A program made the translations under genes and the position numbers. The notes beneath the pieces are model-generated. The model saw only the letters and a list, made by a program, of their open reading frames with translations. It had not been told where the DNA came from and ran no database searches. Shown here piece after piece: positions 47,204 to 51,704 of a stretch of 64,000 nucleotides of DNA (the stretch's first letter is position 1; each line of letters starts with the position of its first letter). The stretch covers positions 84,000 through 147,999 of the forward strand of contig NZ_PDHM01000018.1 of assembly GCF_002573715.1 (NCBI RefSeq), given 5' to 3'. The stretch is from Paenibacillus sp. EZ-K15 (lineage in GTDB: Bacteria; Bacillota; Bacilli; Paenibacillales; Paenibacillaceae).

Positions 47204-47377
47204 ATGTATCTAACCCTCCTATAGTTTTGGACGTCGTACCATTGTTATATTAAATTTCAAAAAAATACCGCACCCAGTCACTTGAATTCATTATACATGA
47301 TGAAAAAGTGAAAACACAAGTCAACCACCTTCGTGAGCCATAGGATACCCAGAAACAGAAGGGTTTAAAACGAAGAA

Positions 47378-47408
47378 AAGCCACTGCCTTCATTGAAGGC
47401 AATGGCTT
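47378..47408 (-). terminator. Terminator of dapA
   Basis: AAGCCACTGCCTT/AAGGCAATGGCTT, 13-bp stem with one mismatch, 20 nt past the dapA stop and followed by TTCTTCG. Confidence 0.8.
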
Positions 47409-47428
47409 AGGTTTGGTAGGTGCGCAGC

Positions 47429-48310
47429 TTACAAGGAAGACAGCATATTACGGATAAATGCAGCCTCGTTCTCACTAGGAGAAACGAGCGGCAGACGAAC
47501 GCCGCCGACCTGATAGCCCCGCTCATGCAGAGCTAATTTAACCGCCGCCGGGTTTGGAAGCGGGTCAGGACATTCAAACAGGCCCTTGAACAACGTGAAC
47601 AAGGATTGATGCAGCTTGGCGGCTTCCTTCACGTTTCCTTCCACATAGGCGTGGATCATATCCTTCATGCGGGCGCCAGCGATATGGCTGGCCACGCTTA
47701 CGATTCCGTAAGCACCTACGGCCAGAGCAGGCAGTGCTGAGGAATCGTCGCCGGAATAAACGATGAACCCGTCCGGAGCACCTGTGGCAATGGCGGTGAC
47801 CTGATCAATCGAAGCACATTCCTTCGTCGCAACGATGTTCGGTAATTGAGCCAGACGCAGGGTGGTAGCCGTGCTTAGGCTGATGCCCGTCCGTCCAGGC
47901 ACATTGTACAGCATGATAGGTAGAGAAGTTGCCTCAGCGATCGCCTTAAAATGCTGGTAGAGCCCTTCCTGGTTCGGCTTATTGTAGTACGGAGCGACAA
48001 GCAAAATGCCATCGACGCCGCAGCTTTCCGCTTTTTTCGTCAATTCTGCAGAATGTGCCGTATCGTTGCTGCCGGTACCTGCGATAATCTTGCTTCGTCC
48101 ACCTGCCTGCTTCACTGCGAACTTAAACAATTCAAGCTTCTCGTCTTCGCTAAGCGTTGGGGATTCGCCCGTCGTTCCTGCAATGACCAGGGAGTCCGAT
48201 TTCTGTTCGACAATCAGGTACTCAATCAATCTCGCAGTCTCGTCCCAATTGATCTCGTTATTCTGATTAAATGGGGTTACCATAGCCGTAATCAATCTTC
48301 CGAAATCCAC
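47429..48310 (-). CDS. dapA: 4-hydroxy-tetrahydrodipicolinate synthase
   Basis: A 293-aa (beta/alpha)8 aldolase condensing pyruvate with aspartate semialdehyde, first committed step to diaminopimelate and dipicolinate. Motifs: AGTTGESPTLSEDEK near 43 (Thr-Thr pair), YYNKPNQEGLYQHF near 107, LYNVPGRTGISL near 133 and the Schiff-base Lys in ATKECASIDQ near 161. GTG start after AAGGAGG. Downstream of dapG, upstream of the RNase J gene. Its substrate must come from an asd gene outside this window, since the local asd is a relic. Confidence 0.96.
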   Translation of the reverse strand: MDFGRLITAMVTPFNQNNEINWDETARLIEYLIVEQKSDSLVIAGTTGESPTLSEDEKLELFKFAVKQAGGRSKIIAGTGSNDTAHSAELTKKAESCGVDGILLVAPYYNKPNQEGLYQHFKAIAEATSLPIMLYNVPGRTGISLSTATTLRLAQLPNIVATKECASIDQVTAIATGAPDGFIVYSGDDSSALPALAVGAYGIVSVASHIAGARMKDMIHAYVEGNVKEAAKLHQSLFTLFKGLFECPDPLPNPAAVKLALHERGYQVGGVRLPLVSPSENEAAFIRNMLSSL

Positions 48311-48413
48311 AATGATTCCTCCTTAAAGCTCTCCCAAACAGGCAAGCTTCCTTCGTAAGTAATCTTATATATAGTATTTCCTATCAAACGATTAACGAAC
48401 AGACTCTAAGGTA

Positions 48414-49628
48414 TTATCGGTGAAGTTCAAATTTGTGATGCAATGCGCGCAGCGCTTGAGCCATATCTTCCTTCTTCACAAGCACCCAGATCGTTGTGTT
48501 CGAATCTGCCGATTGCAGAATCGGAATATCGTGCTCGCTCAAGGATTCTACGATTTTGGCCATGATGCCCGGAACCCCGTTGATGCCGCCGCCAATAACG
48601 GATACCTTCGCACAGCCGGACAAGCTTTTTGGTTTCAAATCCAGGCTCTGCAGCACTTCAATCGCCTTCTCCGAGTCGCTGTCAAACACCGTATAAAGGA
48701 CTCCTGTAGGGGTAACATTAATAAAGTCCACGCTAATGGAATGCTCTGCCATCGATTTGAAAACCTTCAGTTGAAGACCTTCCGTGCGATCGCATTCCAC
48801 TGAGATTTGCGTAATATTGCTTACATAAGCAACTCCCGTCACAAAGCGGTCCACAATTCCGGATTGTATATCTCTGAAGCCTTCCGGCTGGGTAACCAGT
48901 GTCCCCTCATTATCCGAGAAGGTTGACCGCACTCTGACCGGAATTTGGGATTGCATAGCAATCTCAACTGCTCTAGGATGAATGACCTTGGCACCTTGAT
49001 GAGCCATATTGCAAATCTCCGTATAACTTACATAACTGAGCGCTTTCGCATCCTCGACGATGCGGGGATCCGCCGTAAGAATGCCGTTGACATCCGTGTA
49101 GATATCAACCATTTCGGCGCGAAGCGCGGCTCCAAGCGCGGTGGCTGAGGTATCGCTTCCGCCCCTGCCCAGCGTCGTGAAGTCACCCGAATCGGTCTGC
49201 CCCTGGAAACCAGTGACGATAACAACTTGGTGAGACTCCAACTCTTTCAAAACCCGTTCAGGTTTTACGTCCTTAATGCGTGCATTTCCGAAGTGATCGT
49301 CTGTAAGAAATCCGGCTTGGGCACCCGTCAACACCGTCGCGGTTATCCCTTCATGCTGAAGGAGACTGCATAGCGTTGTGGCTGAGATAATCTCACCGCA
49401 GCAGAGCAGTAAATCCCGCTCTCTGTCTGGAAGCGCGTTTCCGCTCTGACCGATCCAATCCAGAAGAGTATCTGTAGCGTAAGGCTCCCCGCGGCGTCCC
49501 ATAGCCGATACGACCACGACCAATTGGTAGTGATTAGCCAGTTCGCGCTGGATGTGCCCAATAACATGGGTTCTTGCTTGCGGTGTAGACAACGAGGTTC
49601 CGCCGAATTTTTGAACTAAGATGCGCAT
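48414..49628 (-). CDS. dapG: Aspartate kinase I, diaminopimelate-sensitive type
   Basis: A 404-aa aspartokinase phosphorylating aspartate. Kinase motifs: VQKFGGTSLS at the start, TTLGRGGSDTSATALGAAL near 152 and TDVNGILTADPRIV near 178. Two C-terminal ACT domains start with VECDRTEGLQLKVF near 275 and SVIGGGINGVPGIMAKI near 345. Position between dpaB and dapA matches B. subtilis dapG, whose enzyme is inhibited by meso-diaminopimelate. It starts 70 bp after the asd relic. Confidence 0.95.
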   Translation of the reverse strand: MRILVQKFGGTSLSTPQARTHVIGHIQRELANHYQLVVVVSAMGRRGEPYATDTLLDWIGQSGNALPDRERDLLLCCGEIISATTLCSLLQHEGITATVLTGAQAGFLTDDHFGNARIKDVKPERVLKELESHQVVIVTGFQGQTDSGDFTTLGRGGSDTSATALGAALRAEMVDIYTDVNGILTADPRIVEDAKALSYVSYTEICNMAHQGAKVIHPRAVEIAMQSQIPVRVRSTFSDNEGTLVTQPEGFRDIQSGIVDRFVTGVAYVSNITQISVECDRTEGLQLKVFKSMAEHSISVDFINVTPTGVLYTVFDSDSEKAIEVLQSLDLKPKSLSGCAKVSVIGGGINGVPGIMAKIVESLSEHDIPILQSADSNTTIWVLVKKEDMAQALRALHHKFELHR

Positions 49629-49698
49629 AAAATATTCCTCCGTTTATATATGCCCAGGAGACGTAAATTTCGGGCCGACCGATTGAAACGGCCGGCTA

Positions 49699-49893
49699 CT
49701 AAGCCTGGCCGTTCCGTTTGTTAACGATGATTTCTGCGATTAGCACGGCATTCCATGCTGCACCCGTCAGAAGATGATCTGAAACGATCCACATGTTAAG
49801 TCCGCGCTGATGTCCCTCCAGCAGCTTGGGAATCTGTTGCCCGACTGCGCCAGTTGCTCCAACAAAGGCCACATTATAATAATGCTCCGTCAT
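49699..49893 (-). pseudogene. asd: Aspartate-semialdehyde dehydrogenase relic with large in-frame deletion
   Basis: The 64-codon frame starts with NVAFVGATGAVGQQIPKLLE, the NADP-binding N-terminus of Asd, and then jumps to GLNMWIVSDHLLTGAAWNAV and IAEIIVNKRN, the C-terminal end of Asd. About 270-280 codons between them, including the catalytic Cys segment, are missing; the junction is near 49822-49833 (EGHQ). No stop or frameshift interrupts it. It has AAGGGG 11 bases before the ATG and sits exactly where asd lies in B. subtilis (dpaB-asd-dapG). It cannot be a dehydrogenase. Confidence 0.88.
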
Positions 49894-49975
49894 CTGGCTA
49901 AATTCCCCTTCATGAATGAAACTGCAGCTGTAACTTTTCTATGTTGCCCTTATTGATCAAAAGGCTTTATCGCGG

Positions 49976-50566
49976 TTAATGCGAATATTCAACGATCATC
50001 GGCTGCAGCTGCTTCCCTTCCAGTGCCGCATAACACGCTTCCGGAATCAAATCCATTTTGGCGACAAGCGAGTTAGGCTTCTGCTGCGGATTATCCTGTC
50101 CGTAAGGAACAAAATAAATATTTTTCGTTACAAGCAGCTTCGCGATATTCGCCGCATTCAGTCCAAGGCCATCATTCGTTGAAATCGCCAGAACCAGCGG
50201 TCTGCAATTTCTCATCTGTGCCTTGGCTGCCATTAACACAGGGCTGTCAGTCATCGCATTGGCCAGCTTGCTGGTCGTGTTTCCCGTACATGGGGCGATA
50301 ACCAGAACGTCAAGAAGCTTGGATGGGCCTAGCGGTTCCGCCTCCACAATTGTAGAAATAATATCATTCCCGGTTATATCTTTCAACTGTTTCTGCCAAT
50401 TCTCCGATGTGCCGAATCGGGTATCCGTTGTCATGATAGTGCTGGACACAATCGGCACCACATTCGCTCCACCATCTTTGAACCGCTGGATCTGCGGCAT
50501 CACTTCTTCAAGCGTGCAGTGCGATCCTGTCAGGGCATAACCCACTGTTATTCCATTCCAATTCAT
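49976..50566 (-). CDS. dpaB: Dipicolinate synthase subunit B
   Basis: A 196-aa flavoprotein-like subunit (SpoVFB). Motifs: ITVGYALTGSHCTLEEVMPQ at the start, VIAPCTGNTTSKLANAMTDS near 90 and VLAISTNDGLGLNAANIAKL near 128, the Rossmann-like flavodoxin fold of the DFP/FMN type. With DpaA it oxidises dihydrodipicolinate to dipicolinate in the mother cell. It starts on the base right after the dpaA stop, with SD GGGGGG inside dpaA. Confidence 0.95.
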   Translation of the reverse strand: MNWNGITVGYALTGSHCTLEEVMPQIQRFKDGGANVVPIVSSTIMTTDTRFGTSENWQKQLKDITGNDIISTIVEAEPLGPSKLLDVLVIAPCTGNTTSKLANAMTDSPVLMAAKAQMRNCRPLVLAISTNDGLGLNAANIAKLLVTKNIYFVPYGQDNPQQKPNSLVAKMDLIPEACYAALEGKQLQPMIVEYSH

Positions 50567-51463
50567 CTACGCATCCCCCCGAATCTTGATTTCTTCAGAA
50601 ATCAGCTCCACCAGCGTATTGGCCATAATGATGCCGGCTGTTTTAGGAGCCACGATTCCGGGTAGTCCGGGTGCGAGCATGGCTTTGATGCCCCGTTTTT
50701 CAGCATAGCGAAAATCGCATCCACCGGGTGCGGAGGCAAGGTCGATGATGACAGCCTCCCGTGGCATTTTCGAGATGATTTGTGCTGTGACTATCATAGT
50801 TGGAATCGTGTTAAAAAGCAAGTCAATATCCGACACATAAGAACTCAGATCCCTTACCAGGAAGGGCTTCCAGCCCATTTCCTCCGCTCTGGCATAGTGC
50901 TCCGATTTACGTACGCCCATCCGAATTTTGGCACCCAGGCCTTGCAGGCTGCGCGCCATGGTGAACCCTGTCCGTCCCATGCCAAGCACCATGCTGGTTG
51001 ATCCGTGAATCGTAAAATCCGTGTTTTGGATCGCCATCATCAGTGCACCTTCCGCTGTCGGAATGGAATTATAGATGGCTACATCGTCCCTCTCCAAAAT
51101 CTCTACCAGCTTGATCTTATATTTGTCACATAGCGAGCGCAAATAGGGCTTCGCCATGCCTGTATAGATCACTCCATGTCCTGGCATCGCTGCGATATGC
51201 TCCTCCTGCAGTCGCAATGGCCCCTCTGAGAACAGCGCGCTGACACGTCCCTCATCATCACATCCCACGACAGGCAGGATCAGAGCATCGGCATTCGATA
51301 ACAGCTCTGGCGTGAGCGGCTCGCGAGTCACTCCCTGAAAAGAATCCTGCAGTTTCTCAAACCCGGCGATCATGACGGAGGCATCCATCTCAGCGCATTT
51401 TCGTATGACTTCAATTTGCCTTGCGTCTCCACCTACAAAGACGGTCCGGACTCCAGTCAGCAT
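50567..51463 (-). CDS. dpaA: Dipicolinate synthase subunit A
   Basis: A 298-aa NAD(P)-binding subunit (SpoVFA). The N-terminal part holds VFVGGDARQIEVIRKCAE, the Rossmann motif is VLGMGRTGFTMARSLQGLGA near 157, and the C-terminal part has IDLASAPGGCDFRYAEKRGI near 235. With DpaB it makes dipicolinic acid, the major spore-core solute. SD AAAGGAG at 11 bases. A sigma-K promoter match upstream fits mother-cell expression. Confidence 0.95.
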   Translation of the reverse strand: MLTGVRTVFVGGDARQIEVIRKCAEMDASVMIAGFEKLQDSFQGVTREPLTPELLSNADALILPVVGCDDEGRVSALFSEGPLRLQEEHIAAMPGHGVIYTGMAKPYLRSLCDKYKIKLVEILERDDVAIYNSIPTAEGALMMAIQNTDFTIHGSTSMVLGMGRTGFTMARSLQGLGAKIRMGVRKSEHYARAEEMGWKPFLVRDLSSYVSDIDLLFNTIPTMIVTAQIISKMPREAVIIDLASAPGGCDFRYAEKRGIKAMLAPGLPGIVAPKTAGIIMANTLVELISEEIKIRGDA

Positions 51464-51501
51464 GGAAGGCCTCGCTCCTTTCTTCTAACCAACGTATAAA
51501 C

Positions 51502-51530
51502 CATCTTATGCCGTCGCCTATAGGGTGGTG
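51502..51530 (-). promoter_or_regulatory. Sigma-K promoter of dpaA-dpaB
   Basis: Minus-strand CACC (51530-51527), 16 bp, then CATAAGATG (51510-51502). This matches sigma-K promoters (AC-N16/17-CATANNNTA) except for the last base, and lies 39 bp before dpaA. Confidence 0.6.
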
Positions 51531-51627
51531 AGCGCATTTCAATTAAACTACCGCCTTAACGCAATAAATAACACTATAGATGGCGAGTCGGATCCGAAGC
51601 CATTTTGCATGGACGCTAACGCAAAAA

Positions 51628-51655
51628 ACACCGCCCGGCTAGGCCGGAGCGGTGT
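51628..51655 (-). terminator. Terminator of dut
   Basis: ACACCGC/GCGGTGT with inner CGGC/GCCG pairs and TTTTTTGCG on the minus strand, about 50 nt past dut. Confidence 0.8.
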
Positions 51656-51704
51656 GCTTGGTAAAACTATGATGATGATGCCCATAAATTATCTATAATA
51701 TAGA

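What the first reader, a model, noticed from the sequence alone, without database searches (positions are those of the whole stretch)
49699..49893. asd locus reduced to a 64-codon in-frame fusion of its two ends
Exactly between dpaB and dapG, where Bacillus carries asd, only the first ~20 and last ~38 codons of aspartate-semialdehyde dehydrogenase remain, joined in frame with no stop. The middle (catalytic Cys, most of the NADP and substrate sites) is gone. The pathway on both sides (dapG, dapA, dpaAB) is intact, so Asd must be supplied by another gene. The frame stays open with an SD, so a mini-peptide may be made; that could be recent decay, or retention to keep operon translation coupling.
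Basis: partly seen in the sequence, partly recalled or inferred. Interest (0 to 1): 0.75.

Follow-up and report, generated by a model that had tools for sequence, protein, structure and literature searches.

The report
Fossil of a displaced asd gene
In this Paenibacillus the usual copy of an essential amino-acid and cell-wall gene has been cut down to a dead 64-codon stub, apparently because a differently built, separately regulated version elsewhere in the genome does the job, and related species show the same replacement at other stages of decay.

Summary
Between dpaB and dapG lies a 64-codon ORF made of codons 1-26 and 311-348 of a bacterial-type Asd; 852 bp, including the catalytic centre, are missing. 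It is not an assembly collapse: a second, single-contig genome of the same species has the same junction. It looks like a pseudogene, not a mini-protein: between these genomes 7 of 12 substitutions are nonsynonymous (omega 0.43, against 0-0.12 in four flanking genes), and no other of 100 genus genomes matches the stub in one piece. An intact 361-aa archaeal/fungal-branch Asd lies on another contig behind a T-box leader whose inferred specifier is AAA (Lys). Of 100 genus genomes 82 have only this type, 11 only the operonic type, 6 both, 1 only a frameshifted operonic copy. On a dpaB+dapG tree the operonic gene was lost 16 times if it cannot be regained; remnants differ in footprint. In the window's subclade the one piece of asd kept by all 11 asd-less genomes is a hairpin over its stop codon (no compensatory changes). 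This is a well-preserved case of gene displacement; the stub itself is ordinary decay.

The parts
49699..49893 (-). asd_B pseudogene: 64-codon in-frame fusion of the two ends of aspartate-semialdehyde dehydrogenase
49816..49893 (-). remaining 5' end of asd_B, codons 1-26
   Evidence: alignment to intact asd of G032/G066
49699..49815 (-). remaining 3' end of asd_B, codons 311-348 and stop
   Evidence: alignment to intact asd of G032/G066
49815..49816 (-). deletion junction (852 bp missing), 1-base overlap G
   Evidence: shared with G070
49685..49715 (-). 13-pair hairpin over the asd stop codon, seen in 17 of 17 genomes of the subclade with or without asd; no compensatory double changes
48414..49628 (-). 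dapG, aspartate kinase, intact
49976..50566 (-). dpaB, dipicolinate synthase subunit B, intact
50567..51463 (-). dpaA, dipicolinate synthase subunit A, intact
47429..48310 (-). dapA, intact

Best explanation
The stub is a pseudogene left by displacement of an essential gene. The operonic, bacterial-type asd (asd_B, TIGR01296) became redundant once the genome also carried an archaeal/fungal-branch asd (asd_EA, TIGR00978) at another locus, in this lineage behind a T-box leader that probably senses lysine charging. An 852-bp deletion that happened to be in frame then removed 284 codons in the common stem of G000 and G070 (or passed between them by recombination), while G032 and G066 kept the gene. 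Shown: deletion, replacement gene, T-box match, shared junction, relaxed evolution, graded remnants elsewhere. Inferred: that redundancy permitted the loss, that the T-box specifier is AAA/Lys, and that asd_EA supplies all Asd flux, also in sporulation.
For: Intact asd_EA in G000, closest by sequence to solved Asd chains of which 3hsk and 1ys4 are named as fungal and archaeal. T-box at 97.5 bits (gathering 93) just upstream. Genus, 100 genomes: asd_EA only 82, both 6, asd_B only 11, frameshifted asd_B only 1 (G062). Family, 295 genomes: asd_EA over cut-off 192, asd_B 141; by my reading of the two tables both in 41 and neither in 3, which agrees with the tallies. Same junction in G070. Stub omega 0.43 with 7 nonsynonymous: 5 synonymous against 8.5: 41.5 pooled over dapG, dpaB, dpaA and dapA of the same pair; Fisher p 0.005-0.008 with rounded counts. 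Asd_B remnants by tblastn in 10 of the 82 asd_EA-only genomes, with different footprints. 16 loss-only events on the dpaB+dapG tree. Broken or partial asd_B copies between dpaB and dapG also in five genomes of other genera that have asd_EA.
Against: The frame is open in both genomes and start and spacing are kept. The stub's omega is below 1, though not distinguishable from neutral (p 0.17; only 12 substitutions). Sixteen losses assumes asd_B at the root, no regain, and a midpoint-rooted two-gene tree with some weak nodes (G062's frameshifted copy counted as present); unordered parsimony on 51 genomes needs 9 changes. The asd_EA tree puts G000 outside G070+G032+G066 (96/94), against the operon tree that joins G000 with G070 (100/100), so genes have moved within this complex. 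The route of asd_EA between clades is unresolved (one clade not rejected, p-AU 0.285 and 0.409). No expression data.
Confidence: 0.92

Rival explanations
1. The 64-codon frame is a maintained small protein with a new or leftover function.
For: ATG start, upstream purine-rich stretch and an open frame in two genomes of the species.
Against: 7 of 64 residues differ between the two copies, against 2 of 404 in dapG (99.5% identity); omega 0.43, significantly laxer than flanking genes. Twelve random substitutions leave the frame open in 48% of simulations. None of the other 98 genomes searched matches it in one piece.
Confidence: 0.04
2. The stub is kept because translating through it couples dpaB to dapG or protects the operon mRNA from polarity.
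For: It stays in frame, and dpaB is followed by dapG in 100 of 100 genomes.
Against: 82 nt and 70 nt of untranslated spacer on either side; 46 of 100 genomes have a gap of 97-220 nt, too short for such a stub with spacers; the eight other remnants translated show stops in all three frames or frame shifts between their Asd-like parts.
Confidence: 0.05
3. The hairpin over the asd stop codon is a functional RNA element (processing, stability or partial termination before dapG), and this is why the 3' end of asd persists. Compatible with the pseudogene reading.
For: 17 of 17 genomes of the subclade keep it, 96.4% of 220 cells paired against 17-50% when slid; in the 7 most eroded genomes the 5' arm keeps 86/98 positions against 93/161 in the asd codons just before it; it is the only asd part matched in all 11 asd-less genomes of the subclade.
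Against: No pair changes on both sides and the covariation score does not exceed shuffles; I see no such hairpin in folds from the other two clades; no Rfam match; no terminator-like site on the gene strand, while on the opposite strand the hairpin does score as terminator-like, at a rate close to shuffles.
Confidence: 0.5
4. Assembly collapse or sequencing artefact.
For: None found.
Against: Same junction in a second, single-contig genome at 96% identity.
Confidence: 0.01

Closest known systems
Bacterial-type aspartate-semialdehyde dehydrogenase, asd_B (TIGR01296 / PRK14874), in the dpaA-dpaB-asd-dapG-dapA operon
   Same: Position, flanking genes, and both ends of the sequence.
   Different: 284 central codons are absent; it cannot be an enzyme.
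Archaeal/fungal-branch aspartate-semialdehyde dehydrogenase, asd_EA (TIGR00978)
   Same: The intact 361-aa gene elsewhere in the genome passes the cut-off and is nearest by sequence to solved archaeal and fungal Asd chains.
   Different: Found in a bacterium of a family where 141 of 295 genomes carry asd_B over its cut-off; here behind a T-box leader, away from the dap operon.
Non-orthologous gene displacement with a pseudogene at the old site (general concept, recalled)
   Same: Old copy decays in place while an enzyme of another branch carries the function.
   Different: Several stages are preserved in one genus, with dpaB-dapG adjacency kept in 100 of 100 genomes.
T-box leader (RF00230)
   Same: Score over gathering upstream of asd_EA in 22 of 26 loci of clades 1a and 1b examined.
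   Different: Stands before a stand-alone archaeal/fungal-type asd; no listed title or abstract in my paper searches reports this.
Lysine riboswitch (L box) operons containing asd
   Same: Lysine-responsive RNA control of operons with asd is described in other Firmicutes (PMC5584792, passages seen).
   Different: Here a T-box, not an L box.

Membership tests
asd_B (TIGR01296), as a working member | Sequence related to the family | tested here: met
   43.4 bits, E 2.2e-11
asd_B (TIGR01296), as a working member | Score over the curated cut-off / full length | tested here: not met
   43.4 against 324.2 bits; profile positions 309-338 of 339
asd_B (TIGR01296), as a working member | Catalytic Cys region (PNCS; motif recalled) | tested here: not met
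   the motif, present in the intact G032 protein, lies inside the deleted codons 27-310
asd_B pseudogene | Same locus as the intact gene in relatives | tested here: met
   dpaB then dapG in 100 of 100 genomes, with a full asd_B between them in 17
asd_B pseudogene | Relaxed constraint | tested here: met
   omega 0.43 against 0-0.12 in flanking genes; p 0.005-0.008
Maintained small protein | Purifying selection on the peptide | tested here: not met
   7 of 12 substitutions nonsynonymous; not distinguishable from neutral, p 0.17; few sites, so weak selection is not excluded
asd_EA (TIGR00978), the replacing gene | Score over the curated cut-off | tested here: met
   344.4 against 301.2 bits, positions 1-341 of 342
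asd_EA (TIGR00978), the replacing gene | Asd activity; tetramer typical of the branch | not testable with these tools
   branch features seen in passages of PMC4751538
T-box leader (RF00230) | Score over gathering | tested here: met
   97.5 against 93 bits in G000
T-box leader (RF00230) | Specifier codon for a defined amino acid | tested here: inconclusive
   AAA at the inferred specifier position in 26 of 26 loci of clades 1a/1b (23 by pattern; 3 by reading); the position is inferred from the Rfam consensus and from recall

The most novel reading that the evidence does not exclude
A stand-alone, lysine-T-box-controlled archaeal/fungal-type Asd repeatedly takes over from the operonic Asd in Paenibacillus, so that Asd becomes the lysine-responsive valve of the aspartate pathway, while a stem-loop at the erased gene's 3' end is kept by selection as an RNA boundary element in front of dapG.
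Probability: 0.3. Interest if true: 0.55.

Novelty: new member of a known kind. Interest (0 to 1): 0.38.

Why it matters
asd is essential for diaminopimelate, lysine, threonine and methionine (established knowledge), and Asd is discussed as a drug target (PMC9385607, passages seen). In this genus two different branches of the enzyme replace each other, with intact, half-erased and fully erased copies at one fixed site. That makes the order of events in gene displacement, and what survives of a dead gene inside a live operon, directly testable.

Tried and rejected
Rejected: assembly collapse (same junction in G070). Rejected: coupling or peptide retention (above). Not shown: horizontal movement of asd_EA between clades 1a and 1b. 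EA proteins are closer between these clades (mean identity 0.889) than dpaB+dapG (0.817) and the EA tree mixes them, but the AU test does not reject one clade (p 0.285 for 1a, 0.409 for 1b). Not shown: covariation in the hairpin. Rfam found nothing at the window locus, 47300-51700. Promoter-like and terminator-like scans near the stub give counts close to shuffled ones (2 found against 1.4 expected each). The plasmid collection gave only two partial matches, under dpaB. A shared neighbour (nhaC-like gene downstream of asd_EA) is present in only 9 of 58 EA loci, so synteny does not settle the gene's history. Paper searches with aspartate-semialdehyde dehydrogenase plus Paenibacillus, non-orthologous, T-box, or archaeal+fungal+bacterial+family, and with aspartate semialdehyde dehydrogenase+horizontal gene transfer+asd, dipicolinate synthase+asd+dapG+operon, T-box+lysine+Paenibacillus+specifier, T-box+lysine+asd+lysC, and Paenibacillus+asd+dapG: no listed title or start of abstract reports this displacement; of the listed papers only three were opened, and of PMC9385607, PMC5584792 and PMC4751538 I saw passages only.

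Full report
OBSERVATION. The ORF at 49699-49893 (-) is real. It has 64 codons and lies between dpaB and dapG. Profile searches place its C-terminal half on the end of asd_B (TIGR01296 positions 309-338 of 339; 43.4 bits) and its N-terminal part on the start of Asd models. Against the intact gene of G032/G066 it keeps codons 1-26 and 311-348; 852 bp are missing, with a one-base overlap at the junction at 49815/49816. In a search of 100 genomes of the genus, 24 match some part of the 347-bp stretch and 2 match it in one piece, G000 and G070. G070 is marked as the same species and is a single contig. In G032, G066, G096 and G004 the two halves are separated by the length of an intact asd. An assembly collapse is therefore very unlikely.

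WHO MAKES ASD. G000 holds a complete 361-aa Asd on contig C12. It passes TIGR00978 (344.4 bits, cut-off 301.2). Its best solved relatives include 3hsk and 1ys4, named as a fungal and an archaeal Asd in PMC4751538 (passages seen). The other gene of G000 with the C-terminal Semialdhyde_dhC domain (contig C20) I take to be argC, from its sequence and its argJ-like neighbour (recalled signatures). A third, weak NAD-domain match (31.2 bits, 279-aa frame) on C5, outside the window, was not studied. A T-box leader lies about 200-460 nt upstream of the asd_EA start codon.

HOW COMMON. In 100 genomes of the genus, asd_B passes its cut-off in 17 and asd_EA in 88: 82 EA only, 6 both (G015, G016, G072, G096, G032, G066), 11 B only. 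G062 has only a frameshifted asd_B; it is 98% complete with 10% contamination, so this may be a sequence error. In 295 genomes of the family (drawn evenly, some of them in this genus), EA passes in 192 and B in 141. From the best E-values in the two tables I count 41 with both and 3 with neither, which agrees with the tallies. The three are G114 (89% complete), G347 (85% complete; EA E 3.5e-74) and G350 (EA E 1.8e-78). Some B copies counted over the cut-off are broken: G179 and G302 hold a stop, G112 is split in two frames.

STAGES OF DECAY. dpaB is followed by dapG in 100 of 100 genomes (in G029, G044 and G063 the dapG match starts with a partial piece). The gap is 1112-1242 bp in the 17 genomes with asd_B over its cut-off and 97-696 bp in 73 of 82 EA-only genomes; the other 9 hold a second dpaA-like gene there (1111-1259 bp). 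Asd_B remnants are detected by tblastn (E up to 1e-3) in 10 of 82 EA-only genomes: G000, G070, G024, G033, G014, G036, G011, G003, G012, G079. In the window's subclade the parts matched by blastn differ (coordinates of the G032 gap, asd at 83-1129): G000/G070 1-160 and 1012-1199; G033 714-891 and 1054-1199; G024 593-1197; G052 890-929 and 1087-1197; G063 1107-1198; G028/G031 1091-1196; G010 54-76 and 1115-1198; G020 738-785, 1115-1143 and 1183-1195; G014 1041-1153. Five broken or partial copies in other genera (G179, G256, G270, G302, G322), all in genomes with asd_EA, lie between dpaB and dapG too.

HOW MANY LOSSES. On a midpoint-rooted dpaB+dapG tree, with asd_B at the root and no regain, 16 losses are needed (G062 counted as having the gene; some nodes are weak, for instance 0.497 for the node that places G024). 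Unordered parsimony on a 51-genome subset needs 9 changes. In the operon tree G000, G070, G032 and G066 form one clade (100/100) and G000+G070 another (100/100); G032+G066 as a pair is weak (92/27). So the deletion belongs to the G000/G070 stem. One result cuts across this: the asd_EA tree places G000 outside G070+G032+G066 (96/94). Genes have evidently been exchanged within this complex, and the shared junction could have spread by recombination instead of common descent.

IS THE STUB USED. Between G000 and G070 it has 12 substitutions, 7 nonsynonymous: dN 0.050, dS 0.115, omega 0.43. The same pair gives 0.039 (dapG), 0.104 (dpaB), 0 (dpaA) and 0.117 (dapA); intact asd between G032 and G066 gives 0.088. 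The contrast with the flanks is significant (p 0.005-0.008 with rounded counts); the stub alone cannot be told from neutral (p 0.17). Twelve random substitutions leave the frame open in 48% of simulations, so the open frame needs no special explanation. The 82-nt and 70-nt spacers argue against translational coupling.

WHAT IS KEPT. A 13-pair hairpin covers the asd stop codon (49685-49715). It appears in the individual folds of 17 of 17 genomes of the subclade, 11 of them without asd and one (G062) with a frameshifted asd. 96.4% of 220 cells pair, against 17-50% for slid versions; no pair changes on both sides, and the covariation score does not exceed shuffles. In the 7 most eroded genomes its 5' arm keeps 86 of 98 consensus positions, while the asd codons just before it keep 93 of 161 and the 27 columns after the hairpin 114 of 182. 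In the folds from the other two clades I see no equivalent. It looks conserved as RNA, but covariation does not prove it.

REGULATION OF THE REPLACEMENT. I examined 58 of the 88 asd_EA loci. A T-box passes gathering in 22 of 26 loci of clades 1a+1b and in 0 of 32 loci of clade 2. The motif GGTGGTACC lies within 700 nt upstream in 26 of 26 and 0 of 32. The triplet at the inferred specifier position is AAA in 26 of 26: 23 by pattern and 3 by reading the sequence. The base before it varies. This points to lysine, by inference.

VERDICT. The finding is a true pseudogene, shared by both genomes held for the species, and one frame of a long film of gene displacement. The stub is ordinary; the genus-wide pattern and the T-box on the replacing gene are the parts worth following.

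Noticed in passing
dpaB-dapG gap of G006 (L064), G040 (L065), G093 (L063), G029 (L067), G089 (L061), G008 (L055), G041 (L056), G059 (L054), G056 (L112): In these nine genomes the slot between dpaB and dapG, where asd was, holds a second dpaA-like gene of 297-314 aa. The four checked (G006, G008, G056, G059) also keep dpaA upstream of dpaB.
   Followed up: partly
L133:2535-2799 (G000 contig C12), outside the window: T-box leader with inferred Lys (AAA) specifier upstream of the archaeal/fungal-type asd; found in clades 1a/1b, not upstream of the 32 clade-2 homologues examined.
   Followed up: partly
window:49629-49660 (-): A CTCC...GGAG stem may cover the dapG Shine-Dalgarno; its four pairs form in 16-17 of 17 genomes of the subclade, with changes to G-U only.
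   Followed up: no
window:49873-49900 (-): A promoter-like match (TAGCCA, 16 nt, TATAAT) overlaps the first codons of the stub; the scan finds no more such sites than shuffles do.
   Followed up: no
L067: asd_EA of G000, G070, G032, G066 (L133-L136): The asd_EA tree joins G070 with G032/G066 and leaves G000 outside (96/94), against the operon tree (G000+G070 100/100), which suggests gene exchange within the complex.
   Followed up: no
L045 (G062): The only Asd of this genome is an asd_B split by a frameshift; likely a sequence error, as asd is essential.
   Followed up: no
L041 (G063, Paenibacillus sp. JCM 10914): dapG is read as two overlapping ORFs of 238 and 183 aa, suggesting a frameshift or sequence error.
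   Followed up: no
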